DNA from: Spirochaetota bacterium
Lineage (GTDB): Bacteria > Spirochaetota > UBA12135 > COTS27 > JAFLEE01
Length of the DNA: 44,171 nucleotides
Assembly: GCA_017302015.1 (NCBI GenBank)
Contig: JAFLEE010000041.1
Location: 1-44,171 of the forward strand
Direction of reading: 5' to 3'
A model generated the notes under the pieces. It made no database searches and had not been told where the DNA came from. It was given only the letters and a program-made list of their open reading frames with translations. Shown here one piece after another: positions 1-16,285 of the stretch. The number at the start of each line of letters is the position of its first letter. Position 1 is the first letter of the stretch. The position numbers and the translations under genes are program-made.

Positions 1-110
1 CGCGCCGAGCTCGTCATCGTTGACATAAAAAAGCCAGCGTGCTAGCATCTGGGAAGTGACGCGCAGAGAGGTCTGCGGGTGGCTTTTTTAAATCGGAACG
101 CCCGGCTTTT

Positions 111-2483
111 TTGATCGGTGTGGGCAGCTCTGAAAAAATTGCCACGTCAATCGGCGACGATCTGGTTAAATATGGCCGCCTGCTCACACGAATCGATCGA
201 GATAAGATAGCCGATTTGATCAAATTGAAGCTCCACATTGAAAAGCAGATGAAGGAGTATATTGCTAGAACCGAGCGGATTCTCTTCGAGGGGAAAGCGC
301 ATTTTACCGAACGGCTCATGCAAAATAATGAAACCATTGTTCCCCGAACAGAATGGTTGTCACAATGGTTTTCACTGAAGAATGAGGTGAGTAGTCCCCG
401 GACGTATTTAAGTCTTTGGCGTTCCGGACAGGCGCCCCTTTCTTACATGAAGTCAAAGTATAAGGTTTTAGCGGGTGTGAAAACCCCCAAGGGGCCCCGA
501 AACCGGGAACTCTATACAGCCCTGAAAGCCCCTTTTCCAAACCCAAAATTGCAATACATTTGGGAGGAATTGCTCGATGGGGGTTCCACTTGGCCCTACC
601 TTTGGTTACCACCGACCCGGCCGTATTATCCGTCCCATGGGATCTACAATGAAAAGACGGTAGATAACACGAAGGTGAGAAAGGGCCTGGTTTTCTCATC
701 ATGGAATTTTGTGCCTACGTTGATTGCGGCTGAACTTTCAAATGAAATCTCGAAAGGTCATTCGAAGGGGCCTAAACACGCCTTAAAAGAAGGCACGGGC
801 CTTTGGGCTAGGTTTTGGCATCCGAGCCCTTATCTGTGCAATGTCATCAAACACGATTTCTTTTCGAGTCGACAAGGGTTGAGTTTTGATGAATTAATGC
901 GTTCAGCCATCGAGGTTATAAAGAAGGACCTTGATAAACGACAGTGGGCGGATACTGGCAGAGCCCTGTCCGGCTGGCAAGCACTGATTCATCTCGATTT
1001 CGAAGGAAAAAGCAGTAAGATAGATAAGGATCTGCTCAGTGTCATCACCGGCACAAAATCACGTTTCCCCCTGCGAGAGTCTAAAAACACCCCCATCGTC
1101 GTTTCACAAAAGCTCAGCGAGTACAAAAGCACTTCTAAAAATGCATATTCGAAGGACTTGTTGAGTTTTCTGGCCAAAACCGCGCTCCTTTCGCCATCGG
1201 TATGTTTGTTGCGCGCCCTGATTTCTTCGAGGACAGTGGGGGCTGCACCATCCAGAGATGAAATCAAAATGCTGATGGATTTTTGTGGTCGCCACTGGAA
1301 AGCGTTTTTCAATCGGGAAGGCATCGCTGCCGTAATCAACTCGGTCAAGGGCAAGAAGAAATTTCCCGATCGCCTCGAGGCCTACCTTCAAGATGGCAAT
1401 ATCCAGGCGATGTTGGATGAATATACCCACCATGCGGCAGAACCCCGTAAATCGGGGGAAAAAAGCCCAGCGTTAAACCGATTCCTGGTGAAATTATCCC
1501 TGGCACTTGGGTCCCGTAAGTCTTCCCTGACCGTCAAGAAAGGCCACCGTCAGCGTGCTCGGGTAGCCACCGATCGGATCAAGGCTTTCGGGCAGGATGA
1601 AGACCAAAATGATTCCCGGGAGAGTCTGCGGGAGGCCTTCAACAGCCCCTTTTGGCCCTTTGTACTGGTGACCACGTCCGTTGGGCAAGAGGGCCTCGAT
1701 TTCCATCTTTACTGCAAAGAAATTTTCCATTGGAATCTTCCATCAAACCCCATCCAATTCGAACAACGGGAAGGGCGCATTAACCGCTACAGTGCCCTTT
1801 GGGTCCGAGAAGCGGTTTCAAAGGCCTTGCCCGAAAAGGACCATTGGGGCCAGGACCATTGGCGCGGTTTGTTTGATGAAGCAAAGAGATTGGGTGACCG
1901 GTTTGTTCGCCACGGGGTGGGCATCTCGCCACGGTGGAGCTATTCAAAGACAGAAAAAGGACCCAAAGTGAGAGACGTTGGGTATGTCCGTCACGTATTG
2001 GCCATACCGGGTTCCGAAGAGTCCCTGCGATACCAGCAAATGCTTTCGAGCCTCGAGCAGTATCGACTGACGCTCGGCCAGAGCAATCAAGAACAATTTC
2101 TGAAACGACTTAAAGAACTGAACCTAAAGAAAATGGGCTATGATGCCAAAGGATTGATGATCTGCCTGTTTCCTGGTGAGATGGGGGTGCATCGGACTCG
2201 GCTATATAAGGAATTGAAAAAGCCCGAAGATTATGAAAGCCTCTGCGTAGATGCCAACAAACATCTATTGTCGATGGAAGCGGACGCCAAAAAGAAGATA
2301 CAACCATTGGTCACCCGGGCAATTCAGCAGATTCGGGCCGGTGGCAAGAAAGAGAAGGAGGCTTGCACCAAGGCGCTACTTTATTTCATTGATCCCTTCG
2401 ATGAGATTAAGGATTTCACTCCTGGCAGGGGGTGGGATGATGATATTGAGGTATTTCAAAAGGCGTTGATGGTAAAGGGGTAG
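111..2483 (+). CDS. SF2 helicase-like protein, N-terminal half missing
   Basis: The encoded chain (790 residues from a TTG at 111) carries the second half of a superfamily 2 helicase. A motif IV-like segment (GLVFSSWNFVP) lies near residue 193, a motif V-like segment (TTSVGQEGLDFH) at 521-532 and a motif VI-like segment (QREGRINRY) at 552-560. No Walker A or DEAH box is present in this frame. The frame is open upstream only to 60, after a TGA at 57-59. The first bases of the window, in another frame, read ELVIVD, which resembles the start of a motif II; frameshift or deletion in a gene that begins outside the window is therefore possible. Such long helicases often sit in defence or restriction loci, which fits the convergent ATPase gene. 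Base composition is visibly lower in GC than the bulk of the window. The helicase C-terminal assignment is firm; the function and intactness are not. Confidence 0.72.
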   Translation: MIGVGSSEKIATSIGDDLVKYGRLLTRIDRDKIADLIKLKLHIEKQMKEYIARTERILFEGKAHFTERLMQNNETIVPRTEWLSQWFSLKNEVSSPRTYLSLWRSGQAPLSYMKSKYKVLAGVKTPKGPRNRELYTALKAPFPNPKLQYIWEELLDGGSTWPYLWLPPTRPYYPSHGIYNEKTVDNTKVRKGLVFSSWNFVPTLIAAELSNEISKGHSKGPKHALKEGTGLWARFWHPSPYLCNVIKHDFFSSRQGLSFDELMRSAIEVIKKDLDKRQWADTGRALSGWQALIHLDFEGKSSKIDKDLLSVITGTKSRFPLRESKNTPIVVSQKLSEYKSTSKNAYSKDLLSFLAKTALLSPSVCLLRALISSRTVGAAPSRDEIKMLMDFCGRHWKAFFNREGIAAVINSVKGKKKFPDRLEAYLQDGNIQAMLDEYTHHAAEPRKSGEKSPALNRFLVKLSLALGSRKSSLTVKKGHRQRARVATDRIKAFGQDEDQNDSRESLREAFNSPFWPFVLVTTSVGQEGLDFHLYCKEIFHWNLPSNPIQFEQREGRINRYSALWVREAVSKALPEKDHWGQDHWRGLFDEAKRLGDRFVRHGVGISPRWSYSKTEKGPKVRDVGYVRHVLAIPGSEESLRYQQMLSSLEQYRLTLGQSNQEQFLKRLKELNLKKMGYDAKGLMICLFPGEMGVHRTRLYKELKKPEDYESLCVDANKHLLSMEADAKKKIQPLVTRAIQQIRAGGKKEKEACTKALLYFIDPFDEIKDFTPGRGWDDDIEVFQKALMVKG

Positions 2484-2613
2484 AATGACCGCAGGATTTA
2501 TAAAGACAGGTAAATAAACCGAATGCATCAAGTTGATTCATCCTATTATTTTTTTTTCGTTAAGTTGATTATGACTCAATTCCTGTAGCCACGAATTCCG
2601 GTGATGTTTCTTC

Positions 2614-2673
2614 GTTTAATGCTGATTTAAGCCGCAACGCGAAGCGTTGTCGCGCTTGAAATCTTTGTTAGAA
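2614..2673 (-). other. attC-like integron recombination site
   Basis: Read on the minus strand this 60-bp imperfect palindrome starts with TTCTAAC (RYYYAAC-like, 6 of 7), then a spacer, TTCAAGCGCGA, an inner hairpin CAACGC-TTC-GCGTTG, GCGGCTTAA, a second spacer, and ends with ATTAAAC (GTTRRRY-like, 6 of 7). Order, length, the TTCAAGC/GGCTTAA arms and the TTC loop match my memory of the classic 59-base element of aadA-type integron cassettes. It begins five bases after the TAG stop of the minus-strand ATPase gene, exactly where a cassette attC belongs. The oddity is the A replacing the invariant G of the cleaved R' core, so the site may be degenerate. A plain terminator hairpin is the alternative, but no T tract follows. 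Confidence 0.72.
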
Positions 2674-2678
2674 CTCTT

Positions 2679-4256
2679 CTAAAAGATATCACGTTCGAGA
2701 GTACTAAAGGTATTGGTGCCAGGCAAAACGAATGCCGATAGTATGTCGCGCATAAACGCATCAGCATTATTGCCGCATTTAGTTAGTGCCATGAGTTTCT
2801 TTGTTTCCACGTAGATTTCCCCGGACGCGGACTTAATATCATCCGGAGCGTTGCCGCGGGATATGGATCTGGAGAGTGCGTTTTGCTTGATCGCTTGCAC
2901 CAAGGCCCACTTTGTGGGGTCAATGGATTCTACAAACGCTCGTAATACTTCGTCACTGAATAGATAAGATTCAAGATTGCGATCTGTCAGAACCCTGATT
3001 CCCTTCGCATTGAAAGCAGCGACATCTGCAGGCGAGTAGTCATCCCGATCAACAATGCGCAAAATGGCGCTACTCTTCAGGAGAGCCTTCAGCGCAAGAT
3101 AGACTGGATGGTCGTCCTTGACTATGTCATTGCAGGCTCCGCCAGACAGAAACACCGCATCTGGATACTTAACTTGAAAGATTCGCGAGTAGATCTCTGC
3201 GTCGAAGTCTTTTCTGCGAACTCCTGTATAGTCACCTTCACAGATAAATACCTTTCCCGGCGAAACCATCCTCGAGAAGTCACCGAAAGAGACGGACAGA
3301 AATTTCTCCCATAGAACCTTATCCATTCTTGAAGGCGTGAGTACGGTCGGCGTATCGAAGTCTCGATCTGCAAAGTCTAGTATTGCCACCGTGCCCGGGT
3401 TAGCACCTTCTATTTCTCGTGCTTCCTGCATTATTCCAAAAGAATGGGTATTGACCCATAACTGCGATTTTTCCGGCAATACGCTGTAGATCTCACGAAT
3501 CAATGACGCTTGCAGACTCGTATGCATATGCGTCTCTGGTTCATCAATAAAGAAAACAGTGTCTTCGTAGTCATCAAGTTTGATAACTAGGTCCAGGATC
3601 AGATCAAACGCTGCTTTCTCACCCCCAGAAAGATTCTTGTACAAAAACGACTTCACAGCCCCTTTCTCAAACTTGAAAGTGCCATCTGAAAGTGGATCAC
3701 CAATATTGTTAAGTCTCAGATCAGAAAAGACATTCTGCATCGACTGTCGAATCTTTCCGATTAGTTCGATCCGAAGGTCCAGCACAGATACTGCGTCGTA
3801 GGCAGTATCGTAGAGTTTTTCCATTGTATTGTGTATGAGTCTCTGATAGTTACCAGAAACCGCTTGATCATTATCGATGAGCTTGTCGAATTTCAAATTT
3901 TCAGAGGGTGCCCCAACTTTAGTGAAGGAACTAACACTGAAGTCAGGATCGTTTCTATAGGCTGAGCGAAAATACATCGACTTCTTTGAAATAGGGCTTG
4001 ATCCATAAAAGTCAACTTGCACTGCGTTTTGATTATCAAAAGCAACGCCTTGTTCCTTTTGGTAATATGTCATGTCTTGATCTAGGCCAAAACCTGTTGT
4101 CTTTTTGTACCAGCGATAGAAACAATCGAATAGCGAGGATTTTCCGGAACCGTTTGGTCCAACAACGAGAACAAGTTTTGTGGATTCGGGAATACTTCTA
4201 ATCTCGAGGTCAGTGAATCTCTTTATGTTCTTCGCCATCAAGTGTTTGACTTTCAT
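2679..4256 (-). CDS. Fused AAA ATPase and DUF4435/TOPRIM-like protein (PARIS-like, single chain)
   Basis: This 525-residue protein joins two modules. Residues 1-300 are an SMC/OLD-type AAA (AAA_15/AAA_21) ATPase: Walker A GPNGSGKSS at 33-41, signature LSGGEK at 209-214, Walker B VFFIDE at 234-239 and an H-loop histidine at 271. Residues 330-450 look like DUF4435, a TOPRIM-related nuclease fold: VFICEGD with Glu340, IVDRD with Asp403 and Asp405, and NLESYL with Glu429. In PARIS anti-phage systems the ATPase (AriA) and DUF4435 effector (AriB) are usually separate but fused versions are known; OLD nucleases have a similar plan. The start is an ATG with GAGGAG about eight bases upstream. An attC-like site follows the stop, and GC content is low, both pointing to horizontal acquisition. 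Domain assignments are solid; anti-phage function is inferred. Confidence 0.85.
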   Translation of the reverse strand: MKVKHLMAKNIKRFTDLEIRSIPESTKLVLVVGPNGSGKSSLFDCFYRWYKKTTGFGLDQDMTYYQKEQGVAFDNQNAVQVDFYGSSPISKKSMYFRSAYRNDPDFSVSSFTKVGAPSENLKFDKLIDNDQAVSGNYQRLIHNTMEKLYDTAYDAVSVLDLRIELIGKIRQSMQNVFSDLRLNNIGDPLSDGTFKFEKGAVKSFLYKNLSGGEKAAFDLILDLVIKLDDYEDTVFFIDEPETHMHTSLQASLIREIYSVLPEKSQLWVNTHSFGIMQEAREIEGANPGTVAILDFADRDFDTPTVLTPSRMDKVLWEKFLSVSFGDFSRMVSPGKVFICEGDYTGVRRKDFDAEIYSRIFQVKYPDAVFLSGGACNDIVKDDHPVYLALKALLKSSAILRIVDRDDYSPADVAAFNAKGIRVLTDRNLESYLFSDEVLRAFVESIDPTKWALVQAIKQNALSRSISRGNAPDDIKSASGEIYVETKKLMALTKCGNNADAFMRDILSAFVLPGTNTFSTLERDIF

Positions 4257-4594
4257 TTCATCTCCTCACTGCGTGAAGCGTCCTTCTAAATTGAATTAGG
4301 CAGCATGCTCAACTAAATTGAGCAAGGTTATGCGCACTCAAATATCTATAGGGAAGCGTGCGGCAAAAAATATATTATCTTTTTCGCCCGAATCATGTTC
4401 GCCTCCCTTCCTCAATTCCTCTTTCAATACGGTCAATTGCTGAAAATTAAAATGAAGGAACATTCTGACCTAAAATCAAAGCCAATTCTGGCAATTCCAA
4501 CTCAAGATTCATGATCGGCACGTTTTGAACCCAAAAAAGGTCTTTTTATTAATAACCTAAAAGAATTCGATCAGAAACCCCAAAGCCCCTCTCA
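4257..4594. other. AT-rich intergenic region with a 7-bp hairpin
   Basis: This 338-bp stretch separates the ATPase gene from the small gene next to the sigma factor. It is AT-rich and I see no ORF with coding character. It contains a perfect 7-bp stem TGCTCAA-CTAAA-TTGAGCA (4306-4324) in the leader of the ATPase gene; on the minus strand this includes GTTGAGC, a full match to the integron core GTTRRRY. On the minus strand downstream of the 4595 stop there is a short AGGT/ACCT stem (4538-4558) followed by six T residues, a weak terminator candidate. Confidence 0.45.
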
Positions 4595-4855
4595 CTACCC
4601 CTCCTCCTCATCCCAAATCCTCGAAACCTCCCGCACCGAAGCCATCTCACCTGAAACCCTCCTCCCCAACTCCTCCGTAGCCTCCATCCCCGAATACCCC
4701 TCACTCCGAATTTGAAGCAAATTAGTAAGGATCGCCGTATTAAGAAAATCCTTGGCTAAAGCCTCGGGTATGGAAGCCCCGCTCGCATCGAGATTGACGA
4801 TGCGAAGAAGGAGAGACTTGAGTTCTCGATGAGCCTGGGGGTCGGGATGGTTCAT
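4595..4855 (-). CDS. Small hypothetical protein downstream of ECF sigma factor
   Basis: The ATG at 4855 gives an 86-residue, mostly helical, charged protein (starting MNHPDPQAHRELKSLL, ending WDEEEG). I do not recognise a family and see no signal peptide or membrane segment. The frame stays open to a GTG at 5056, ten bases past the sigma-factor stop, which would add 67 residues rich in Ser, Leu and His that do not look coding; I chose the inner ATG although it lacks a strong ribosome-binding site. It follows the sigma factor gene on the same strand, so co-transcription and a role such as a small regulator of the sigma factor are possible but unproven. Confidence 0.5.
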   Translation of the reverse strand: MNHPDPQAHRELKSLLLRIVNLDASGASIPEALAKDFLNTAILTNLLQIRSEGYSGMEATEELGRRVSGEMASVREVSRIWDEEEG

Positions 4856-5066
4856 GGGTGCTTGGTTTAACAGTGGTGGTGATTTTTTTAATTGATTCCT
4901 TAATCGCCCAAATGAAAGCAGATGATGTCCATGATACGGGATTATAAGTTTTTGGTCAATGGGAAGACATTTTTTATAGCGACCCAAACAAGAACGACTC
5001 AAGTAAAACTTCACCGATCGCAAAGATTCTTCCGGTATCTGACTCGTCGAGTACACTTAAAAATCC

Positions 5067-5708
5067 TCATCCCCCCACCCCACACCCCTCCCTAACCACC
5101 CGCATCGCTCGAAAATAAGCCACCCGCGCCGCCCCCCCGCTCATCCCAAACTCCTCCCCAAGTTCCGAAAACGAAACCCCCTCCTGCCGCCGAAGCAGCA
5201 GCCCCTGATCGCGGGCCGAGAGCCGAGAAAGCGCCGCCTGTAAAAGTTCCATCTCGCGCATCACCGCGTTATTCCCCTGGCCGAGGGAGGCCCCGGGTGT
5301 ATTCGACGACAGCCCGTGGAGAATTTCCACGGCGAAATCGCCAGAGGCCGGATACTCGTCATCCAGGGGAAGGGGAGAGGGCCGGCGCCGCAGGGCGCGT
5401 AAGGTATTCAGGGCATGGTTTCGGGAGAGCCGGCGGATCCAAGTGGAGAGGCGGGCCTTCTGGGGGTTGAAGCGGCCCAATTGGGAGACGATCTTAAAGA
5501 GCACCTCATTGGCGACCTCTTGCCGATCCTCGGGGTCGGGGAGCACGGCGTGAATTTGGGAGTGGATAAGCCGCCCGAAGCGCTTCCAAAGGGTTCGAGG
5601 GGCGGCAGGGTCTCCGGTAAAAAGCCCGCCCGTGCCTGCCTGAGTTTCGGTGCATTCCGGCCCCATTTCTTGCGGAACCATGGGAATTTTGATGATATTC
5701 TGATCCAT
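5067..5708 (-). CDS. ECF-type RNA polymerase sigma factor
   Basis: The 213-residue product has the two-domain layout of an extracytoplasmic-function sigma factor. A sigma-70 region 2 spans roughly residues 40-105, with the region 2.4-like helix STWIRRLSRNHALNTLR that would contact the -10 element. After a variable linker, region 4 (about 150-205) includes LSARDQGLLLRRQEGVSFSELGEEFGMS, a typical -35 binding helix-turn-helix. Region 3 is absent, as expected. The N-terminal 35 residues are a low-complexity extension. The ATG at 5708 has AAGAG about eight bases upstream. No recognisable anti-sigma factor with membrane helices is adjacent; the small gene downstream is the only same-strand neighbour. 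It is divergent to the DUF6266-like gene, whose upstream region has strong repeats. Confidence 0.88.
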   Translation of the reverse strand: MDQNIIKIPMVPQEMGPECTETQAGTGGLFTGDPAAPRTLWKRFGRLIHSQIHAVLPDPEDRQEVANEVLFKIVSQLGRFNPQKARLSTWIRRLSRNHALNTLRALRRRPSPLPLDDEYPASGDFAVEILHGLSSNTPGASLGQGNNAVMREMELLQAALSRLSARDQGLLLRRQEGVSFSELGEEFGMSGGAARVAYFRAMRVVREGCGVGG

Positions 5709-6076
5709 ACGTCACTCTTGAACTGATTTATGATAGATATCGTCAATAAATATCCAAGTTTTTAGTGTTATTCATAAAATACGACAATTAAATTGATCGA
5801 AATAGATAAATATTTGAGTGTCGTCAACTAAAATTTACTTTTTGGTGATTTTTTAACCATCCACCAAGAAATGCAAACGTATTTCACGGGGGAACGGGTA
5901 GGGGAAGGCTCCGTTTCAGCTCCGTATCAGCTCCGTTTCTGCTCCGTTCCGAATCCCTTGTAACGCCCCGGTGTATATAAGGGCAGGAACGAGGGAAAGG
6001 CGGCGCGGCTGCAGCGGCGCTGGGGGAGGCCTCCCCCAAGCCCTTCCCCCGGTCCATAAAACAAAAGGAGCCAAAC
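5709..6076. promoter_or_regulatory. Divergent control region between sigma factor and DUF6266-like gene
   Basis: This 368-bp stretch has no gene. The half next to the sigma factor (5709-5880) is strongly AT-rich and contains TCGTCAA at 5740-5746 and again at 5821-5827. The half next to the + strand gene is GC-rich and holds the 11-bp spaced GCTCCGT boxes described separately, then a TATATAAG element at 5974-5981. No classical -35 lies 17 bp before that TATA-like element. A very GC-rich leader of about 90 bp separates it from the ATG at 6077. Confidence 0.5.
5908..5947 (+). repeat. Four GCTCCGT boxes at 11-bp spacing
   Basis: GCTCCGT occurs at 5908, 5919, 5930 and 5941, each start exactly 11 bp after the last, with mostly TTTC or ATCA spacers. 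The boxes lie on one helical face and end 26 bp before a TATATAAG element. That arrangement is typical of an array of activator or repressor binding sites; which protein binds is unknown. Confidence 0.8.
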
Positions 6077-6703
6077 ATGGCACGTCTCAAACTCAATTTC
6101 GTCCTCTCCGATCTGCGCGACCGGGTGGGCAATGTGGTCTTCTCCAAGTGGAAGGGGGTGAATTACCTGAAAGAGTACACCCCCCACCCGGTGAGCAACT
6201 CGCCCGAACAAATGCAGGTGCGAAGCAATTTCTCGCGCCTCGTCGCCGCCTGGCGCCCCCTCGCCCCGGCCCTGCGCCGCACCTGGGATGCCGCGGCCCA
6301 CGGCCTCGACATGACCGGCTATAACCTCTTCATTGGCGAGAACTCCAAGCATCTCGACAAGGGCGAGCCCATCGAACTATCCCGGGCCTCCCACGGGGAG
6401 CCGCTCACCGGTTTCACCGTGACCCCCCGCACTCCGGGCCAGGGCCTGCAGGTGGCCTTCGCCTACCCCGCCTCGGCATCCGGGCTGCACCTGCTCCTCG
6501 GGGTGCAGAAGGTCGACTCCAATAACGCGCTTTCTCCGGTGGTCTTCACGGATCACGGCGCGGATGCCGTGAGCCCCATCACGGTCTCTTCCCTCGAAGC
6601 CGGCGTGACCTACGTGGTCTACGGCTACCTGGCTAACGGCGATCTCGCCACCGCCACGAGCCTGTCTCCGGCGGTGTCGGGGAGCGCGGCGCCGGGGGCT
6701 TGA
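6077..6703 (+). CDS. DUF6266-like protein of unknown function
   Basis: The 208-residue product starts with a basic, conserved-looking segment (RDRVGNVVFSKWKGVNYLKEY, residues about 14-34) followed by a PxxxNSPEQMQVRSNF stretch. This resembles the N-terminus of DUF6266 proteins, which share a (G/R)KVGN-V-(Y/S)KWKG-(x)-(Y) core and an ALxQRxxF element; I assign it on that similarity. The second half (from about residue 110) is Ala/Val/Thr-rich beta, with a fibronectin-like pattern. No signal peptide or membrane helix is visible. It is monocistronic: a GC-rich hairpin begins 13 bp after the stop. Upstream lie four phased 7-bp boxes and a divergent ECF sigma factor, suggesting tight control. Function unknown. 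Confidence 0.6.
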   Translation: MARLKLNFVLSDLRDRVGNVVFSKWKGVNYLKEYTPHPVSNSPEQMQVRSNFSRLVAAWRPLAPALRRTWDAAAHGLDMTGYNLFIGENSKHLDKGEPIELSRASHGEPLTGFTVTPRTPGQGLQVAFAYPASASGLHLLLGVQKVDSNNALSPVVFTDHGADAVSPITVSSLEAGVTYVVYGYLANGDLATATSLSPAVSGSAAPGA

Positions 6704-6716
6704 CCCATACGGCTGT

Positions 6717-6749
6717 CCCCCTTCCTTCGCCTGGGGCGGAGGGAGGGGG
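6717..6749 (+). terminator. GC-rich hairpin after the DUF6266-like gene
   Basis: CCCCCTTCCTTCGCC pairs with GGCGGAGGGAGGGGG over 15 positions (G-U pairs allowed) with a 3-nt loop. It starts 13 bp past the stop. There is no U-tract, so it may act as an RNA 3'-end stabiliser or terminate poorly. Related hairpins occur at 7487 and 12707. Confidence 0.5.
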
Positions 6750-6847
6750 GGAGCTGGATGATCGCTGTTTTTATATTCGCCCAGTCGGATGATGGCGTTT
6801 TTATCGGGATGAAGGGTAGACTTGAGGAGATCGAAGGGACCCTATCC

Positions 6848-7141
6848 ATGAATCGGGATCAAGTGCTTGATGTTTTGCGCCGCGACGCGAAAGGGCTCAT
6901 GTCCAGCTTCAACCTGGAACATTTGTCCGTATTCGGCTCGGCGGCCCGCGACGAACTCCGGCCCGAGAGCGACATCGACATTCTCGTGGAGTTCAAGGGC
7001 TTACCGACCCTCGCCGCCTATTGCGCCCTTCAAGACCGGCTGACCGGCCTGCTCGGTCGTCGGGTCGATCTCGTGACGGAAAAGGGGCTCAAGCCCAGGG
7101 TGCGGCCGCACGTCGAGAAGGATCTCATCCGTGTCGCATGA
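6848..7141 (+). CDS. mntA: MntA-type nucleotidyltransferase antitoxin
   Basis: The 97-residue product is a minimal nucleotidyltransferase of the MNT family. It contains the signature GSX10DXD: Gly30-Ser31, ten residues, then Asp42-x-Asp44, which bind the NTP and metal. In MntA/HepT modules this enzyme AMPylates the HepT toxin and so neutralises it. I chose the ATG at 6848 because family members start about 30 residues before the GS motif; the frame is open further upstream to 6758 and an ATG at 6809 is possible. The 3' end overlaps the next gene by 11 bp, so translation is coupled. The cassette-like pair is a type VII toxin-antitoxin module. Confidence 0.85.
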   Translation: MNRDQVLDVLRRDAKGLMSSFNLEHLSVFGSAARDELRPESDIDILVEFKGLPTLAAYCALQDRLTGLLGRRVDLVTEKGLKPRVRPHVEKDLIRVA

Positions 7142-7475
7142 CTGGCGGCTTCGCTTAGATGATCTCATCGAGAGCGCCGAAAAGATCGGGCGTCTGGTGG
7201 ATGGAAAAGACCTGGAAACTTTCCAATTGAACGAGGCCATCTTTGATGCCGTTCTTTTTAATCTGCAGGTGATTGGAGAGTCGGTGAAGGGGATCCCTGC
7301 GGAGATCAAGGCTGAAATTCCAGGTCGGGATTGGTCATTGCCGGCGCGATTGCGCGACCTCATCGCGCACCATTATTTCGATTTGGATGCCGGGCTGATT
7401 TGGCACACCGCGAGTGTGGAAATTCCGAAGATTCTTGTGGATGCAAAGATTTTGAAGGAAAAGTACCAGGCTTGA
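7131..7475 (+). CDS. hepT: HepT-like toxin (DUF86)
   Basis: The 114-residue all-helical product belongs to the HEPN superfamily, HepT/DUF86 branch. The ribonuclease motif RX4HXY is present as Arg75-DLIA-His80-His-Tyr82. HepT cleaves RNA and is silenced by AMPylation of the motif tyrosine by MntA. Translation starts at the GTG at 7131, inside the last codons of mntA (11-bp overlap, +1 relative frame); the nearby ATG at 7138 is in a different frame. The length is normal for the family and the catalytic residues are intact, so the pair appears functional. A hairpin follows 12 bp after the stop. Confidence 0.87.
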   Translation: MSHDWRLRLDDLIESAEKIGRLVDGKDLETFQLNEAIFDAVLFNLQVIGESVKGIPAEIKAEIPGRDWSLPARLRDLIAHHYFDLDAGLIWHTASVEIPKILVDAKILKEKYQA

Positions 7476-7750: not shown

Positions 7751-7965
7751 CTCCCTCTTCCCCCCGTAATCGACCCTGAAGTCCTACGGGAAAATTGTTT
7801 CGCAAAGGTTTCTTCCTATTATGCCTCCCGCATTCGCATTTATGTCGTATGATAGGGGGCCGACGCAGCCCAAGTGATCCCGTTCTCGGCGGCCCTTTGA
7901 TTCCATCCGGTCCGCCGGAATCTCCCCCAGAAGTCTTTCATCAATTTTTACTTGCTAAAGGTGGC

Positions 7966-10302
7966 ATGATGTTGACGAAGCCCATCGTTGCGCTTATTCT
8001 CGGGTGCGTCGCTTTGCACGCCGATCCGTTCACCGTTCTCGTTATGGATAGCCAAAGGCATGCGGTGGCCCGTGCCCAGGTCTCTGTCGTCGGAAAACTT
8101 TCGGCCATGGAGACCGGCGTTCCGGGTGCCTATGTTTTCGCCGAGCGCCCCGGGGAAGAGGATGTTCTTCTGGTTTCCCACCCCGCCTTTGTGGCCGTGA
8201 CGCGGTCCATGGGCTTATACACCAACACCAACATCGTGGAGCTCGTCCTCCAGTCCCCCCGCCAAAAACGCCTGAGCGAAGTCACCGTCACCGGGGAGGG
8301 GCGCACCGGGGGCAGTCGTATGGCCAGCCAAGAGGATCTTCGCCGTAGTTCCCAACTCAATTGGGGGGATGCGGCGCGCACCCTCCAGGCGCTTCCCGGG
8401 GTGGTCGCGACGGGCAATTCATTCGATAGCCGCATGTATATCCAGGGAGGCTCCGACCAGGAATGGGTGGGGATGCTCGATCACGTGGCCCTTTTCAACC
8501 CCGTGCGTTGGAACGGGGCGGTGAGCATGTTGAATCCCAAGGTCCTCGAAAGCGTGGGGCTCTCCATGGCCGGCTATCCCGCGATCTACGGCCAGGGCCT
8601 TTCCGGGATCTTGGTGGCTAAGACCCTAGAACCCTCCCGGCAGGGGTGGCATGGCTTCTTCGGGTTCGACGCAGGGTTCGAGGGCCTCCTCACCGGTCCA
8701 TTGGGTCGTCACGGGGGGATCCTCATCTCGGCGCGCCGATCCTGGTTGGATGCCGTCATCAATCTCGGGAAAGCCGACCCGAATTTCCGGTTTCCCTTCA
8801 TCGCCGATGGGCTCCTCAAGGTGCAATGGCGCCCCGAAGCCCGCACCGCCCTCGAGTTCCTCGCCTATGCCTCTTCGGAGGGGATGGACATGCCGTCGGG
8901 CCCCGGGGCGCCGGGGAGGTCGGTCAACGAGACCAATGGCTCCACCCAATTCGACTACCGCGATGTGAACCTCATCTTGTCGGTGCTCTTCAAGCAGGGG
9001 TTCGGGGCGAAATCCGACCTGTCCCTTTCGTGCACGGCCCTGCCGCGGTGGAATAGCAACGCGTTGTCGGCGAGCACCCTCCAGTCGTTCGATAACGATA
9101 ATGCGAGCCTCTCCTGGCAGGCCGCCGGCGATCTCCGCCTGGGCGATCTCGCGGGAAACGATTTCCACCTGGGCGCCCTCGTCGTGCCGTACCAGGCCGA
9201 CATCAAACTACGCAGCGCGATCTCGTATTTGAGCGCCTCCGGGGCATGGACCAACGAAACCCGCGTCGTCACCAACCAAACCACCGATCTCTATCTGCGT
9301 TTGTTCGCCCAAGACGCCATCCAAATCCATCCCCGACTCGTCTTGACCGCCGGGTTCGGGGCCGCCTGGTTGCGCCATACGGGCGAGTGGGTTTGGGAGC
9401 CCCGGGGCGACCTGACCTGGAAGCCATCGGAAGCCTGGCAATTGTTCGCCAGAGGCGGGCTCTACCACGCCCAAGAGATCGACTCCGTCACCCTGCGCCG
9501 GGCGCCTTCCGCCATGGCTTCTCCCGCCGCCCTCCACGGGTCCATCGGTTTCCAATTCGCCGCTTCCGGTTGGCTCGTTTCCGGCGAGGGTTTCTACAAG
9601 TCATATACGGGCCTCCTGGTGCCCGCGCCCGACCAATTGCTGACCAATACGGGCTCGCGCCAAGTGTGGGGAGCCAGCGCCTATCTGCGGCGCCAGCGCG
9701 GCAAAGGCGAAGCAATGGGGGGATATCTCTCCTATACCTTCACCCGCGCCGATGAGAAGGTCGCCTCACGGGCCTCGGGGACGGCCTTCGAGCCCCTGCC
9801 CGAGGTGGGCGAGGTCTATACCCCTTCGTTCATTCGGGCCCATAGCCTTGCCGCGACCCTCGAAGTGCTGCCCTTATTCGCCCTGCGCCGGGCTCCCGAA
9901 ACCTTCCGCTTCCTCGAACTCCTCCTCGAAGGGCGCCTTCAATCGGGAAACCCGTATACCTCGGTGACGAATGTGATGCGTTTCGAGATCCCCGGGGTGG
10001 GTTACCGCTATCAATTGCTCTATGGGGGCTATGATCGGGAGGAGAATCCACTCATGGCGGGTTTGGATCTCAAAATCACCTTTCCCATCGGGTCCCATGT
10101 CCGCACCTTCTTCACCGTGGTGAATCTCCTGGGGTCGGTGAAGATCATCGATACGGTCTACCGCGTTCTCGACACGCCCCCGGCGGGGGGGCCCATATTC
10201 TATCGAACGACGCTACTCGGTCCTGGGGCGGTGCAATCGGTGGTGGTGAAGGATCAGGATGGGGCGGTTCAATTTCGTGGCGGGGTGAACGTGGAGTTTT
10301 AG
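7966..10302 (+). CDS. TonB-dependent outer-membrane receptor
   Basis: I start at ATG 7966 (or the adjacent ATG 7969) because AAAGGTGG sits just upstream and the next residues form a signal peptide (KPIVALILGCVALHA, cut before DPF); the frame is open further upstream without coding character. The ~778-residue protein has an N-terminal carboxypeptidase-regulatory-like beta domain (about 20-105), then a plug domain (about 110-230, including LQALPGVVATGNSFDSRMYI and IQGG), then a long beta-barrel rich in alternating aromatic strands. It ends in Val-Glu-Phe, the C-terminal aromatic expected of BAM-assembled porins. It should import a ligand across the outer membrane with TonB energy. The next gene, a GH78-like enzyme 94 bp downstream, makes a carbohydrate ligand plausible, but no SusD partner is present. 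Confidence 0.87.
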   Translation: MMLTKPIVALILGCVALHADPFTVLVMDSQRHAVARAQVSVVGKLSAMETGVPGAYVFAERPGEEDVLLVSHPAFVAVTRSMGLYTNTNIVELVLQSPRQKRLSEVTVTGEGRTGGSRMASQEDLRRSSQLNWGDAARTLQALPGVVATGNSFDSRMYIQGGSDQEWVGMLDHVALFNPVRWNGAVSMLNPKVLESVGLSMAGYPAIYGQGLSGILVAKTLEPSRQGWHGFFGFDAGFEGLLTGPLGRHGGILISARRSWLDAVINLGKADPNFRFPFIADGLLKVQWRPEARTALEFLAYASSEGMDMPSGPGAPGRSVNETNGSTQFDYRDVNLILSVLFKQGFGAKSDLSLSCTALPRWNSNALSASTLQSFDNDNASLSWQAAGDLRLGDLAGNDFHLGALVVPYQADIKLRSAISYLSASGAWTNETRVVTNQTTDLYLRLFAQDAIQIHPRLVLTAGFGAAWLRHTGEWVWEPRGDLTWKPSEAWQLFARGGLYHAQEIDSVTLRRAPSAMASPAALHGSIGFQFAASGWLVSGEGFYKSYTGLLVPAPDQLLTNTGSRQVWGASAYLRRQRGKGEAMGGYLSYTFTRADEKVASRASGTAFEPLPEVGEVYTPSFIRAHSLAATLEVLPLFALRRAPETFRFLELLLEGRLQSGNPYTSVTNVMRFEIPGVGYRYQLLYGGYDREENPLMAGLDLKITFPIGSHVRTFFTVVNLLGSVKIIDTVYRVLDTPPAGGPIFYRTTLLGPGAVQSVVVKDQDGAVQFRGGVNVEF

Positions 10303-10323
10303 GGGGAAGGGTTGGGATGGGGT
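10303..10323 (+). repeat. 21-bp direct repeat, copy 2
   Basis: Exact copy of 7730-7750, beginning at the base after the receptor stop codon. Confidence 0.75.
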
Positions 10324-10396
10324 GCGTCCCCCACGTTTCCAAGCGTATGATTGGGGATCCCCACCTGCTAAAAACCTTCCACAAAAAGGCCCCCCC

Positions 10397-12019
10397 ATGC
10401 TCCCCTCCCGCCTCAATGACCCCGCCGCCCTCCTCGGTCCCGCTCCCCTCGAGGCCATGCGCTCGCGCCGCCAAGAATGGCTTGCCCGCGCCGAATCCCT
10501 GAAGCCGGTTTTAAAAATAAACGAAAGGCTTCCCGTAGGTTTGGTCTCTGTAGTCAATGACCCCAAGGCTTTCCAGGGTTGCCGCATGGAGGCCCGGGGC
10601 GCCGTAGAGTCTGTCCTCGGCAAACCCCTTAAGACGGGAGACTCCTTCATCCTCGATTTCGGGGAGCATCTCACCGGGCGCCTCGCCTTTAGCCTCGTGG
10701 AGCCCGGCGAGGCGGCCGATGCGCCCCTGCGCCTCGCCCTCGTGTTCGCCGAGAGGCCTTGCGAACTTGAGAAGCCCTTCGATCCCTACCCGGGCACCCT
10801 GGTGCGCTCCTGGCTGCAAGACGAGGTCTTCACCCTCGACCATCCCTTGGGGTTCGCCCGGGTCCCCCGCCGCTGCGCTTTCCGCTACGTGAAACTCACC
10901 GTGTTCGCCGTGCGCGACGGGCGAACGGCCTTCGAAAAAGTAATGGTCGAGGCCCAGTCAGCGGTGGAGATGGACGAGGGGGCGCCGGTCCCACCGGGCC
11001 TTTCGCCCGTCGCCGCGGCCATCGATCTCGTCTCCCGGCGGACCCTGCGGGAATGCATGCACACGGTCTTCGAAGACGGCCCCAAGCGCGACCGGAGATT
11101 ATGGCTGGGAGATCTGCGCCTGCAGGCCCTCGCCAATGGGGTGAGTTTCCGCCGCTTCGACCTGGTGAAGCGCTGCCTCTACCTCTTCGCGGCCCTTCCC
11201 CTGGAAGATGGCCTCGTCTCCGCCTGCGTCTACGACGAGCCCCGAGTTCGCACGGGGAACACGCGCATCCCCGACTATGCGGCGCTCTTCGCCTCCACCG
11301 TCCTCGAATACATCCAAGAAAGCGGCGACCGCGCCATCGCCGCCGAGCTCTGGCCCGTGGCCGCCCGCCAGGCCGCGGTGCTCCTCTCCCTCGTGGGCGA
11401 CGATGGCCTCGCCAAGGTCCCCGAGAAGGGCTGGTGGCTCTTCTTCGACTGGAACCCCGAACTCGATCGTCAGGCGCCGCTCCACGGGGCGATCCTTCTT
11501 TGCCTGCGGCGCACCGCGATGCTCGCCCGCATCGCCGGCGTTCCAGATGAAGACGCACGAGTCTATGGGGATGCGGCGTCGAAGATGGAAGCCGCGGCCC
11601 GAAAAGACCTCTATGACGAGGCGAAGGGCTTCTTCGTCAGCGGCGCCTCGGGGCAGGTCTCGGTGCTCTCCCAGGCCTGGATGATCCTCGCGGGGGCCTG
11701 CACGCCGGGGGAAGGGGAGAAACTCCTAACCCGCGTCCTGCGCGAAAGCGGGGCCCTCCCCCCCGTCTCTCCCTACGGCTGGCATTACCTCATGGAGGCC
11801 TGCGCCCTCTGCGGCGGCGAGGCGGCCGGTGCCGGGCGGCGGATCATGGAGGATTATTGGGGCGGGATGCTCGACCGCGGCGCCGATACCTTTTGGGAGG
11901 TCTACGACCCCAAGAACGAGTTCCTCTCCCCCTACGGCGACCACCGCATGAATAGTTATTGCCACGCTTGGAGTTGTAGTCCGCTTTGGTTTATCCGAGG
12001 GGGTGGGTTTGTTCGATGA
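10397..12019 (+). CDS. GH78-like alpha-L-rhamnosidase family protein
   Basis: The product (540 residues from ATG 10397) has the layout of a family 78 glycoside hydrolase: an N-terminal beta-sandwich region (about 60-210) and an (alpha/alpha)6 barrel. The family signature is clear in EDGPKRDRRLWLGDLR at residues 226-241, where the acidic residues and the DGPKRDR turn form part of the active site; DTFWEVYDP near residue 500 is the usual second acidic motif and YGDHRMNSYCHAW closes the barrel. GH78 enzymes release terminal rhamnose, but distant members have other specificities. There is no signal peptide, so it should be cytoplasmic. It lies 94 bp behind the TonB-dependent receptor on the same strand. 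The start is uncertain; the frame stays open to 10322, and AAGG lies 8 bp before the chosen ATG. Confidence 0.8.
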   Translation: MLPSRLNDPAALLGPAPLEAMRSRRQEWLARAESLKPVLKINERLPVGLVSVVNDPKAFQGCRMEARGAVESVLGKPLKTGDSFILDFGEHLTGRLAFSLVEPGEAADAPLRLALVFAERPCELEKPFDPYPGTLVRSWLQDEVFTLDHPLGFARVPRRCAFRYVKLTVFAVRDGRTAFEKVMVEAQSAVEMDEGAPVPPGLSPVAAAIDLVSRRTLRECMHTVFEDGPKRDRRLWLGDLRLQALANGVSFRRFDLVKRCLYLFAALPLEDGLVSACVYDEPRVRTGNTRIPDYAALFASTVLEYIQESGDRAIAAELWPVAARQAAVLLSLVGDDGLAKVPEKGWWLFFDWNPELDRQAPLHGAILLCLRRTAMLARIAGVPDEDARVYGDAASKMEAAARKDLYDEAKGFFVSGASGQVSVLSQAWMILAGACTPGEGEKLLTRVLRESGALPPVSPYGWHYLMEACALCGGEAAGAGRRIMEDYWGGMLDRGADTFWEVYDPKNEFLSPYGDHRMNSYCHAWSCSPLWFIRGGGFVR

Positions 12020-12046
12020 GGCATTCATGAAAAGAAAAAGGCCGAA

Positions 12047-12075
12047 TTGCTCTTACAGCATATGTGTTGTATAAT
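12047..12075 (+). promoter_or_regulatory. Sigma-70-type promoter of the hicAB locus
   Basis: TTGCTC (12047-12052) and a perfect TATAAT (12070-12075) are separated by 17 bp. Transcription would start near 12082, which is already within the remaining hicA codons, showing how much 5' sequence hicA has lost. Confidence 0.6.
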
Positions 12076-12080
12076 CTTGA

Positions 12081-12266
12081 GCGACTGGGAAAGACCTCGT
12101 TCGGCTCCTTGAAGAGGGTGGGTGGCAATTAAAGCGCATCCGCGGTAGCCACCACATTTTGACCAAAGACGGGAAAACGATACCCGTCCCCGTTCATGGC
12201 AATCAAGATATCGGAAAAGGTTTAGCCCACAAGATATTGAAGGCCGCTGGAATCAATCTGAGGTAA
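12081..12266 (+). pseudogene. hicA: hicA toxin remnant without a start codon
   Basis: After a TGA at 12078-12080, 61 codons read ATGKDLVRLLEEGGW, then QLKRIRGSHHIL and VPVHGNQDIGKGLAHKILKAAGI. This is the HicA double-stranded-RNA-binding-like mRNA interferase, including the catalytic histidine in GSHH. It normally starts with M plus about five residues before TGKD; here no ATG, GTG or TTG precedes these codons in frame, and the TATAAT promoter box ends only five bases before the first one. A small deletion or frameshift appears to have removed the start. The stop is two bases before hicB. A sequencing error or a non-canonical start cannot be excluded. Confidence 0.82.
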
Positions 12267-12268
12267 TT

Positions 12269-12691
12269 ATGGAATACGCCGCTCGAATTGTTTGGGACGA
12301 AGGCGACAGGCATTACTCGGTCTCGTTCCCCGAATTCCCCAATATTCATACCTACGGCCGAAGCCTTCCCGAAGCCATGGCTGCCGCCCATGAGGCGCTC
12401 AACGGCACCTTGGAAGCTGATTTTGAGCACGGGCGGCGGCTTCCCGTAGCCAAAAAACACCTGGGGAAGGGGTACCATCCCATCGCCCTCGAACCGTCGG
12501 TCCTCCTCGCCTATCGGTTACGCCAGAAGCGCGGTGCCCAACCCCAATTGGCCATGGCCAAACAACTCGGCATTTCATACCAAGCCTATCAACGGTATGA
12601 AAACCCGGCCCAATGCAACCCGACGCTCAAAACCCTGAAAAAAATCGTCCAAGTGTTCCACATCCCAGCGAAGGATCTTATCGAGGCTTAA
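12269..12691 (+). CDS. hicB: HicB antitoxin with C-terminal HTH
   Basis: The 140-residue product has the HicB fold (MEYAARIVWDEGDRHYSVSF... FPNIHTYGRSLPEAMAAAHEAL, residues 1-50), a degenerate RNase H-like domain that caps HicA, and a C-terminal XRE-type helix-turn-helix (about 75-135, MAKQLGISYQAYQRYENP) that binds the locus promoter. The ATG is preceded by GAGG at 5 bp, inside the last hicA codons. The length and domain order match HicB of the HTH class. It is intact while the partner toxin is not, so it may now be an orphan antitoxin or repressor, able to neutralise other HicA toxins. Confidence 0.9.
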   Translation: MEYAARIVWDEGDRHYSVSFPEFPNIHTYGRSLPEAMAAAHEALNGTLEADFEHGRRLPVAKKHLGKGYHPIALEPSVLLAYRLRQKRGAQPQLAMAKQLGISYQAYQRYENPAQCNPTLKTLKKIVQVFHIPAKDLIEA

Positions 12692-12706
12692 GAACCCGCC
12701 CACTAG

Positions 12707-12738
12707 CCCTTCTCTTCGGCGGATGCGAAGGGAGGGGG
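12707..12738 (+). terminator. GC-rich hairpin after hicB
   Basis: CCCTTCTCTTCG pairs with CGAAGGGAGGGG (two G-U pairs) around a GCGGATG loop, 15 bp past the hicB stop and in the convergent gap before the ABC-F gene. Third member of the hairpin set with 6717 and 7487. Confidence 0.5.
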
Positions 12739-12763
12739 AATAGGATCGCGAACGATTCTTGCC

Positions 12764-14389
12764 CTACCCCTCTGCCCTCTTCTTCTCCAAATAATATGCA
12801 TAGTCCCCATCCACGATGCGGATGCGCCCGTGGTCGACTTCGAAGACCCGGGTGGTGATCTCGCGGAGGAAGAAGCGGTCGTGACTCACCAAGAGGAGCG
12901 TACCCTCGTAGCGCTTGAGGGCTTCCAGGAGGATCTCACGGGATCTTAGGTCGAGGTGGTTGGTGGGCTCATCGAGCACCAGGCAATTATGGGGGGTGGA
13001 GAGGAGGTAGGCGAGGATGACGCGGGTCTTCTCCCCGCCGGAGAGTACCCGGATCTTTTTATTGATGTCGTCGTCGCGGAAGAGGAAGGCGGCCAGAAGG
13101 CCGCGAAGGCCGCCCTCGGTTTCTTTTAGAAGATGGCTCTTCACGACTTCGTAGACTGTCTGGTCTTGGGGCAGGCCCTCGAGGGTGCTCTGGCCGAAGT
13201 AGCCGATGGAGATGCTGGGCCCCACCTGCACCTCGCCCGAGCTGGGCGGGGTGAGGCCGCAGAGCACCTTGAGGAACGATGATTTTCCGGCCCCGTTGAC
13301 CCCCACGATGGCGACCTTGTCTTGGCGGTGCACCGTGGCGCTTAGGCCCGAGAAGACGGGTTTGTCGCTGCCGTCGCTATTCTTCCACGATTTGCCGAGG
13401 TCTTTGATGATGACGACGTCGTTGCCGCCCCGGGGGAGGTTCGGCAGTTTGATGCTGATCTCCGCCTCTTCGGCCACCTGTTCTACCCGCTCGATCTTGT
13501 CGATCTTCTTCACCCGCGATTGCACCTGGGCGGCGTGGCTGGCCCGGGCCTTGAACTTGGCGATGAAGTCTTCTTCCTTCTTCAGCATGCTCTGCTGGCG
13601 GCCGAAGGCGGCCTCCTGCTGGGCGATGCGCACGGCCCGCTCCTTCTCGTAGAAATCGTAATTGCCAGAGTAGACGGTGACCTTGCCGCCTGCGACCTCC
13701 ACGATCTTGCCGGCGACCCGGTTCATGAAATCCCGGTCGTGGGTGGTCATGAGGATGGCCCCCTTGAAGGCCCGAAGCCACCCTTCCAGCCACAGGATCG
13801 TTTCCATGTCGAGGTAATTCGTCGGCTCATCCATGAGGATGAGGTCGGGCATGCGGATGAGCACCTTGGCCAGCGCGATGCGCATCTTCCAGCCGCTGCT
13901 GAAATCTTCCACCGGCTTGTCGTGGTCGGCGGGCTCGATGCCCAGGCCCGAGAGGATGGTCTGGGCGTTGTTCTCGATCTCGAAGCCGCCCAGATGCTCA
14001 TACTCAGTCTGCTCGTCGCCCAATAGTTCGAGCACGCGGGTCATCTCGTCGGGGTCGAGGTCGCTCTCGCTTAGTTTATTCTCGTGGGCCCGCATGCGTT
14101 TGGCGAGTTCGCACACGCGCTCGTGGCCCTCCACCACTTCCTGCATGGCGCTTCGGCCCTTCATCTCGCCCACGTCCTGGGAGAAATAGGCCATGTGCAC
14201 GTTGTTCTGCACGCTGATCGTGCCCACGTCGGGCTGCAGGTCGCCGATGATCATGCGGAAGAAGGTGGTCTTGCCGGCCCCATTGGGGCCCACCAGGCCC
14301 ACCTTTTCGCCGGGGTTCACCTGGAAACTGGCGCCGCTATAGAGGGGGATGCCCCCCACGGTCTTGGTCACGTTGGAAATGCTGATCAC
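12764..14389 (-). CDS. ABC-F family ATPase (translation-associated)
   Basis: The product (541 residues) has two ATP-binding cassettes in one chain and no membrane helices, the ABC-F plan. The first has Walker A GPNGAGKTT at 34-42, a FSSGW signature variant and Walker B LILMDEPTNYLD; the second has GVNGAGKSS, LSGGEKTR and LVLDEPTNHLD. A long charged linker (YSGNYDFYEKERAVRIAQQ and onward, about 225-300) between them is the P-site tRNA interaction motif. ABC-F proteins bind the ribosomal E site and relieve stalling or protect against antibiotics. I use the GTG at 14389 because family members begin (M)ISISN and GAGG lies about 8 bp upstream; an ATG at 14473 would add a proline-rich tail with no homology. 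Subtype (EttA, Uup or ABCF3-like) is not certain. Confidence 0.9.
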   Translation of the reverse strand: MISISNVTKTVGGIPLYSGASFQVNPGEKVGLVGPNGAGKTTFFRMIIGDLQPDVGTISVQNNVHMAYFSQDVGEMKGRSAMQEVVEGHERVCELAKRMRAHENKLSESDLDPDEMTRVLELLGDEQTEYEHLGGFEIENNAQTILSGLGIEPADHDKPVEDFSSGWKMRIALAKVLIRMPDLILMDEPTNYLDMETILWLEGWLRAFKGAILMTTHDRDFMNRVAGKIVEVAGGKVTVYSGNYDFYEKERAVRIAQQEAAFGRQQSMLKKEEDFIAKFKARASHAAQVQSRVKKIDKIERVEQVAEEAEISIKLPNLPRGGNDVVIIKDLGKSWKNSDGSDKPVFSGLSATVHRQDKVAIVGVNGAGKSSFLKVLCGLTPPSSGEVQVGPSISIGYFGQSTLEGLPQDQTVYEVVKSHLLKETEGGLRGLLAAFLFRDDDINKKIRVLSGGEKTRVILAYLLSTPHNCLVLDEPTNHLDLRSREILLEALKRYEGTLLLVSHDRFFLREITTRVFEVDHGRIRIVDGDYAYYLEKKRAEG

Positions 14390-14665
14390 GGGGGCCTCGG
14401 GTGCTTCGGGAGAAGGGGGGGTGGGTGGATGGGATGCGCCCCCGGATTTCCGGGGGAACGGGGCGACGGCCACCTACGCGGCCGCGCCTTCGGGGGAGGG
14501 TATTTTACCCTCAGGATGGGCCCTGTTCAGACAGAGGGCCTCACCCCCCCGGCCCCTCTCCGAGGCCAATCATGCGCCCTGCCACGAAGCGTGGGGTTGG
14601 CATACAGGGCCCATCCCTTGGGAAACCCGCCATTTTGGCCCGATCCCGATGGGATAATTCGGCCA

Positions 14666-16183: not shown

Positions 16184-16285
16184 GTTTCGCCGCGCCTTCC
16201 CAAATCTGCCATCCCCCCGCAGCCATGCCATAGCCACCCCCGCGGCTTTGTGCTATCGTTCCCCCATCCCCCCGGGAGGGCTTCC

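What the first reader, a model, noticed from the sequence alone, without database searches (positions are those of the whole stretch)
2614..4256. A fused defence-like ATPase sits in an integron-cassette context
Seen: five bases after the stop of the minus-strand AAA/DUF4435 gene lies a 60-bp imperfect palindrome whose order (RYYYAAC-like, TTCAAGC arm, CGC-TTC-GCG tip, GGCTTAA arm, GTTRRRY-like) equals an integron attC site. Known: cassettes place attC immediately 3' of the ORF. Inference: this ATPase was captured as a cassette in a chromosome whose neighbourhood is otherwise GC-rich. No integrase is in the window, so it would be a stray or CALIN-type cassette; the core G is replaced by A.
Basis: partly seen in the sequence, partly recalled or inferred. 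Interest (0 to 1): 0.8.

Follow-up and report, generated by a model that had tools for sequence, protein, structure and literature searches.

The report
Lone integron cassette carrying PARIS-like gene
A predicted single-gene phage-defence protein sits in this bacterial chromosome as a lone integron gene cassette with a real but probably worn-out recombination site, away from the integron that the same genome carries; it is a neat new example of a recently described phenomenon (integrons carrying phage defences) rather than a new kind of system.

Summary
On the minus strand, five bases after the stop of the 525-aa AAA gene (2679-4256), lies a 60-nt imperfect palindrome (2614-2673) with attC anatomy. 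A covariance model trained only on ten clinical class 1 attC sites hits exactly 2614-2673(-): 31.3 bits, E 1.5e-5; next window hit 12.8 bits. It is the best hit in the 5.4-Mb genome, single-copy and not called as a terminator. A 52%-identical homologue in Billgrantia pellis ends in an attC within a tandem cassette array. The same genome carries an IntI above the curated cut-off, with its own array, on another contig. The protein is an SMC/PtuA-like ATPase plus a TOPRIM domain whose closest solved fold is AriB of PARIS. Best reading: a PARIS-like defence gene moved by an integron integrase and left singly at a secondary site beside a zacABC defence operon; the core G-to-A change (2620) probably fixes it there. 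The upstream boundary, excision and defence activity are untested. Defence genes as integron cassettes are already known.

The parts
2614..2673 (-). attC site, 60 nt: R'' 2667-2673 (TTCTAAC), L'' 2654-2660 (TTCAAGC), terminal structure 2634-2653 with CGCTTCGCG tip, L' 2627-2633 (GGCTTAA), R' 2614-2620 (ATTAAAC)
   Evidence: CM R1 31.3 bits, E 1.5e-5; best hit genome-wide; nhmmer E 1.1e-7; shuffles at most 14.1 bits
2620..2620 (-). core base of the R' box: A instead of the G of GTTRRRY; probably lowers or abolishes excision (inference)
   Evidence: sequence; GTTRRRY core and cleavage next to the G as described in PMC10127599
2679..4256 (-). 525-aa AAA_21 ATPase with C-terminal TOPRIM/DUF4435-like domain, PARIS AriAB-like
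   Evidence: Pfam AAA_21 6.5e-18; PADLOC AriA 1.6e-20, AriAB 3.3e-18; C-terminal domain closest to AriB, Z 11.2
4307..4313 (-). proposed upstream cassette boundary G|TTGAGC (between 4313 and 4312), the only GTT in the 200 nt upstream of the start codon and a full match to GTTRRRY
   Evidence: inference
2620..4312 (-). proposed extent of the gene cassette (1693 bp); removing it would leave G|TTAAAC, again a full GTTRRRY, as the target site
   Evidence: inference, no relative with the empty site was available
111..2483 (+). C-terminal two thirds of zacC (defence-associated helicase), convergent neighbour; the N-terminal third lies on contig C144
   Evidence: PADLOC ZacC 5.8e-118 covering profile 323-1016; profile 9-323 at C144:118-1062(-)

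Best explanation
A genuine integron gene cassette with a single gene. The gene encodes a one-protein, PARIS-like (AAA ATPase + TOPRIM/DUF4435) abortive defence effector. At some time an integron integrase, either the resident one (contig C77) or that of an earlier carrier, handled the circular cassette through its folded bottom-strand attC and inserted it outside any array at a GTT-type secondary (attG-like) site just downstream of a zacABC defence operon. The cassette's attC remains 3' of the gene, but its core G has become A, so it is probably no longer excisable and the gene is fixed as a chromosomal defence gene. Shown: the attC, its place and orientation, the domain architecture, a resident IntI, a homologue in a true cassette array. 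Inferred: the upstream boundary, secondary-site insertion, loss of mobility, defence activity.
For: CM hit at exactly the expected place and strand, with sound controls: R1 also recovers the resident array (33.2, 28.4 bits) and the Billgrantia attCs (31.2, 21.2 bits), while 112 of 119 other genomes of the phylum have no hit at E 0.05 or better. Homologue in a cassette array. Curated IntI in the same genome; the contigs belong together (tetranucleotide r = 0.99 between window 6-44 kb and C77). Cassette GC 0.445 against 0.65. GTTGAGC upstream and GTTAAAC after removal, both full GTTRRRY. Secondary-site and attG insertion is documented (PMC10127599, PMC12901181). TOPRIM-type residues E340, D403, D405 invariant in 14 proteins.
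Against: One attC alone is the weakest class of integron evidence. The R' and R'' boxes pair poorly in situ. The core G is missing. The cassette's attC type differs from those of the resident array, so the resident IntI need not have placed it. Most homologues (all but Billgrantia, and perhaps L014) are not in cassettes. Low GC is shared with the neighbouring zac genes. The upstream boundary rests on a 7-nt match.
Confidence: 0.72

Rival explanations
1. The site is a real attC, but the cassette is the last remnant of an older array or integron at this spot (decayed CALIN) rather than a single insertion at a secondary site.
For: CALINs are regarded as degraded integrons (PMC9024848); the core G is mutated, suggesting age; a GCATAAC box (one mismatch to RYYYAAC) lies just upstream of the proposed boundary.
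Against: No second attC in the window (next 12.8 bits) or in the 20 kb of C144 to its left; the neighbours are the multi-gene zac operon on one side and ordinary chromosomal genes on the other.
Confidence: 0.2
2. The palindrome is a non-integron element: transcription terminator, REP/MITE or chance hairpin that resembles attC.
For: It is a strong hairpin just after a stop codon, the usual place of a terminator.
Against: No T-run follows it and the terminator scan does not call it; single copy in the genome, so no REP/MITE; the match extends to attC boxes outside the hairpin; shuffles never come near; a homologue has an attC at the same place.
Confidence: 0.05
3. The protein is an OLD-like, Gabija-like or PtuA-like ATPase-nuclease acting on DNA, rather than a PARIS-like effector (PARIS AriB acts on tRNA; own knowledge).
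For: The ATPase half matches PtuA of Septu/retron systems best (Z about 21); the TOPRIM half also matches OLD (Z 8.0) and GajA (Z 6.7); Pfam DUF4435 is not significant in the window protein.
Against: The C-terminal half is closest to AriB (Z 11.2 and 10.2, 177 and 173 of 208 residues); PADLOC AriAB matches all 11 scanned homologues, best 3.7e-33.
Confidence: 0.3

Closest known systems
attC sites of class 1 integron cassettes (aadA/catB type, 60 nt)
   Same: Length 60 nt, box order, TTCAAGC and GGCTTAA arms, CGCTTCGCG tip, position right after the stop codon
   Different: Core G of R' is A; no neighbouring attC, attI or intI
Defence cassettes of sedentary and mobile integrons (Darracq et al. 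2025; reviewed in PMC12409362)
   Same: Single-gene phage-defence candidate carried as a cassette
   Different: Lies alone, outside any array; 525 aa is long for a cassette gene
Cassette insertions at secondary/attG sites (Recchia and Hall 1995, Loot et al. 2024, as cited in PMC10127599 and PMC12901181)
   Same: Single cassette outside an array with GTT-type borders
   Different: Inferred from borders only, in a natural genome, attC core mutated
PARIS, single-protein AriAB form (PMC9122126)
   Same: AAA_15/AAA_21 ATPase fused to a TOPRIM/DUF4435-type domain; AriB is the nearest solved fold of the C-terminal half
   Different: Pfam DUF4435 not significant in this protein; a family of its own (39-52% identity among homologues); trigger unknown

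Membership tests
attC site | R'' and R' boxes RYYYAAC and GTTRRRY | tested here: inconclusive
   R'' one mismatch (TTCTAAC, also seen in the blaIMP-4 attC); R' ATTAAAC lacks the core G
attC site | Structure-and-sequence model score above background | tested here: met
   R1: 31.3 bits, E 1.5e-5, best in genome
attC site | L'' and L' arms forming an imperfect hairpin with unpaired bases | tested here: met
attC site | Recombined by an integron integrase | not testable with these tools
   needs a conjugation or excision assay
Integron gene cassette | attC directly 3' of the ORF, same orientation | tested here: met
   5-nt gap, minus strand
Integron gene cassette | 5' boundary TTRRRY after a G | tested here: inconclusive
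   GTTGAGC at 4313-4307, only GTT within 200 nt; no empty site to compare
CALIN (IntegronFinder 2) | At least two clustered attC sites without intI | tested here: not met
   one attC only; definition in PMC9024848
Complete integron | intI next to the array | tested here: not met
   the IntI search of the genome finds none on C102, which is the window; the curated IntI is on C77
PARIS (AriAB fusion) | AAA_15 or AAA_21 ATPase domain | tested here: met
   AAA_21 66.3 bits, cut-off 27
PARIS (AriAB fusion) | DUF4435/TOPRIM domain | tested here: inconclusive
   Pfam DUF4435 in 4 of 11 homologues, not in this one; fold closest to AriB, Z 11.2; E340, D403, D405 invariant
PARIS (AriAB fusion) | Triggered by anti-restriction proteins such as Ocr, growth arrest | not testable with these tools
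   experiment needed; feature as in PMC9122126

The most novel reading that the evidence does not exclude
One PARIS-like defence family has become an integron cassette several times in unrelated bacteria (this genome, Billgrantia, perhaps a Chitinophagales MAG with an adjacent Xer-like recombinase and a different palindrome type), and here integron traffic seeded a chromosomal defence island outside any array, after which loss of the attC core base locked the gene in place.
Probability: 0.35. Interest if true: 0.55.

Novelty: new member of a known kind. Interest (0 to 1): 0.42.

Why it matters
It is a concrete natural case in which an integron cassette may have carried a single-gene phage defence to a place outside any array, next to another defence operon, in a genome that still has an integron integrase. 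That makes the proposed route 'cassette to chromosome via a secondary site, then fixation by attC decay' testable on one locus. It also adds a PARIS-like ATPase-TOPRIM family to the candidate defence cassettes.

Tried and rejected
Similarity of the 5' leaders of the window gene and the Billgrantia gene looked suggestive by eye (ATGCTGCC) but was not significant (180 of 1000 shuffles as good): dropped. BLAST of the 76-nt site against plasmids found only chance matches. Sampling 369 genomes of Billgrantia's class found no homologue besides B. pellis's own, and 149 genomes of the window's phylum no close homologue besides the window's own; phage records gave none. Homologues L068-L073 from viral contigs have no attC. 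The L014 palindrome is very stable (z -6.7), but R1 does not recognise it (12 bits, E 2) and the adjacent recombinase is below the IntI cut-off (93.7 and 76.6 bits), so it is only 'cassette-like'. C46:13972 (22.7 bits) was judged a chance hit: not adjacent to an ORF end. Rfam gave nothing. AriA was not among the 50 rows of the fold comparison of the whole model, which is no evidence against it.

Full report
Observation. The window is the whole of contig C102 of a 5.4-Mb, 165-contig assembly (the genome search places the window at C102:1-44171). The minus-strand ORF 2679-4256 (525 aa) is followed after five bases by TTCTAACAAAGATTTCAAGCGCGACAACGCTTCGCGTTGCGGCTTAAATCAGCATTAAAC (2673-2614). The order R'', spacer, L'', terminal hairpin, L', spacer, R' is that of an attC; the R' core G is A at 2620.

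Is it more than chance? I took attC sites from clinical class 1 integrons in public plasmids, aligned ten of them and built a covariance model, R1, with the R and L boxes and the terminal stem paired. With filters off, R1 finds the site at exactly 2614-2673(-) with 31.3 bits and E 1.5e-5; the next window hit has 12.8 bits. In the whole genome it is the best hit (E 1.8e-3). A sequence-only HMM of the 60-nt class 1 sites gives 28.2 bits, E 1.1e-7, against at most 14.1 bits in about 8.4 Mb of first-order shuffled sequence. R1 is neither blind nor promiscuous: it recovers strong sites of the resident array in C77 and two in Billgrantia, whereas 112 of 119 other genomes of the phylum have no hit at E 0.05, and one of the seven that do has a run of hits up to 58 bits, as expected of an integron. 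The site is single-copy and is not called as a terminator.

Homologues. Thirteen loci came from GTDB genomes, one from a plasmid, six from viral contigs. Two of the GTDB loci match only the ATPase half weakly (24% and 22%); the rest are 39-54% identical. In Billgrantia pellis (L010, 52% identical) the stop codon overlaps an attC (4651-4699, 21.2 bits), a second cassette follows with its own attC (5339-5398, 31.2 bits), and there is no IntI above the cut-off in that genome: a small CALIN. In a Chitinophagales contig (L014) the gene follows a Xer-like tyrosine recombinase and another small gene, each gene ending in a long palindrome with GTATAAC/GTACAAC-type boxes; this looks like a cassette array of another type, but R1 does not recognise it and the recombinase fails the IntI cut-off. 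The other homologues lie among restriction-like genes, in prophage-like contigs or elsewhere, without an attC. So being a cassette is occasional for this family, but it occurs independently of the window.

Genome context. An IntI with 358 bits (cut-off 265) is on C77:6508-7440, with an array of small ORFs and several different attC types to its left (sites); a further array end is at C46:1-1356. Window 6-44 kb and C77 7.6-20 kb have tetranucleotide correlation 0.99, so the two contigs are very probably of one genome. Left of the window the sequence can be followed: zacC is split, its first 323 profile positions at C144:118-1062(-) and the rest in the window, with zacB and zacA behind it. Both contig ends carry copies of a 20-23 bp repeat (GTGGCTTTTTTAAATCGGAA), as expected if an insertion sequence with repeated ends interrupts zacC (inference). 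R1 finds no attC in the first 20 kb of C144, and the genome-wide IntI search lists none there.

Borders. Within 200 nt upstream of the start codon there is one GTT, and it is GTTGAGC, a full GTTRRRY (4313-4307). If the cassette is 2620-4312, the joined flanks read G|TTAAAC, again a full GTTRRRY. This is what insertion of one cassette at a GTT-type secondary or attG site would leave (PMC10127599, PMC12901181). With a 7-nt motif and no empty-site relative this stays an inference.

Protein. AAA_21 covers residues 29-273. AlphaFold2 models put the ATPase half with PtuA of Septu/retron systems and with SMC heads (Z about 21 and 19) and the C-terminal 208 residues with AriB of PARIS (Z 11.2 over 177 residues) ahead of OLD (8.0) and GajA (6.7). 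TOPRIM-type residues E340, D403 and D405 are invariant in the 14 proteins. PADLOC AriAB matches all 11 scanned homologues. In PARIS, AriAB also occurs as a single-gene fusion (PMC9122126). I therefore read it as a PARIS-like one-protein abortive defence effector; trigger and substrate are unknown, and membership in PARIS proper stays open because Pfam DUF4435 is not significant here.

Comparison with the known. Integron cassettes as phage-defence carriers were established in 2025 (Darracq et al., discussed in PMC12409362), and insertion of cassettes outside arrays is also known. What is added is one well-supported natural case, with a PARIS-like family, at the edge of a zac defence operon, with a mutated core. 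It is not a CALIN in the sense of IntegronFinder 2, which needs two attC sites.

Noticed in passing
L009 (G000:C77) 1-7452: Complete integron: IntI (410-aa ORF 6220-7452) and an array of small ORFs with several distinct attC types (about 57, 125-130 and 200+ nt). None of five cassette ORFs tested matches PADLOC.
   Followed up: partly
L056 (G000:C46) 1-1356: Another end of a cassette array: what looks like a MazEF-type pair followed by an attC (1296-1356) with a degenerate R' box, similar to an attC of the C77 array.
   Followed up: partly
window 1-110 and L083 (G000:C144) 1-124: zacC is interrupted: its N-terminal third is on C144, the rest in the window, and both contig ends carry 20-23 bp repeats as at the ends of an insertion sequence. 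A split IS21-like transposase (rve, weak Mu-transpos_C) lies at C144:6124-7689.
   Followed up: partly
L014 820-4664: Chitinophagales contig with a Xer-like recombinase below the IntI cut-off, followed by genes that each end in a long, nearly perfect palindrome with GTATAAC/GTTATACGC-type boxes: possibly a cassette array of an unusual type.
   Followed up: partly
L038 (G000:C87) 16S rRNA: The 16S sequence looks spirochaetal to me (from memory, not tested); no genome of the same genus or family turned up in the samples.
   Followed up: no
window 7795-19336: Right of the island: TonB-dependent receptor, GH78-type alpha-L-rhamnosidase, DUF2079 membrane protein, DUF4838/CBM9 protein: probably a polysaccharide-use region of normal genomic GC.
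   Followed up: no
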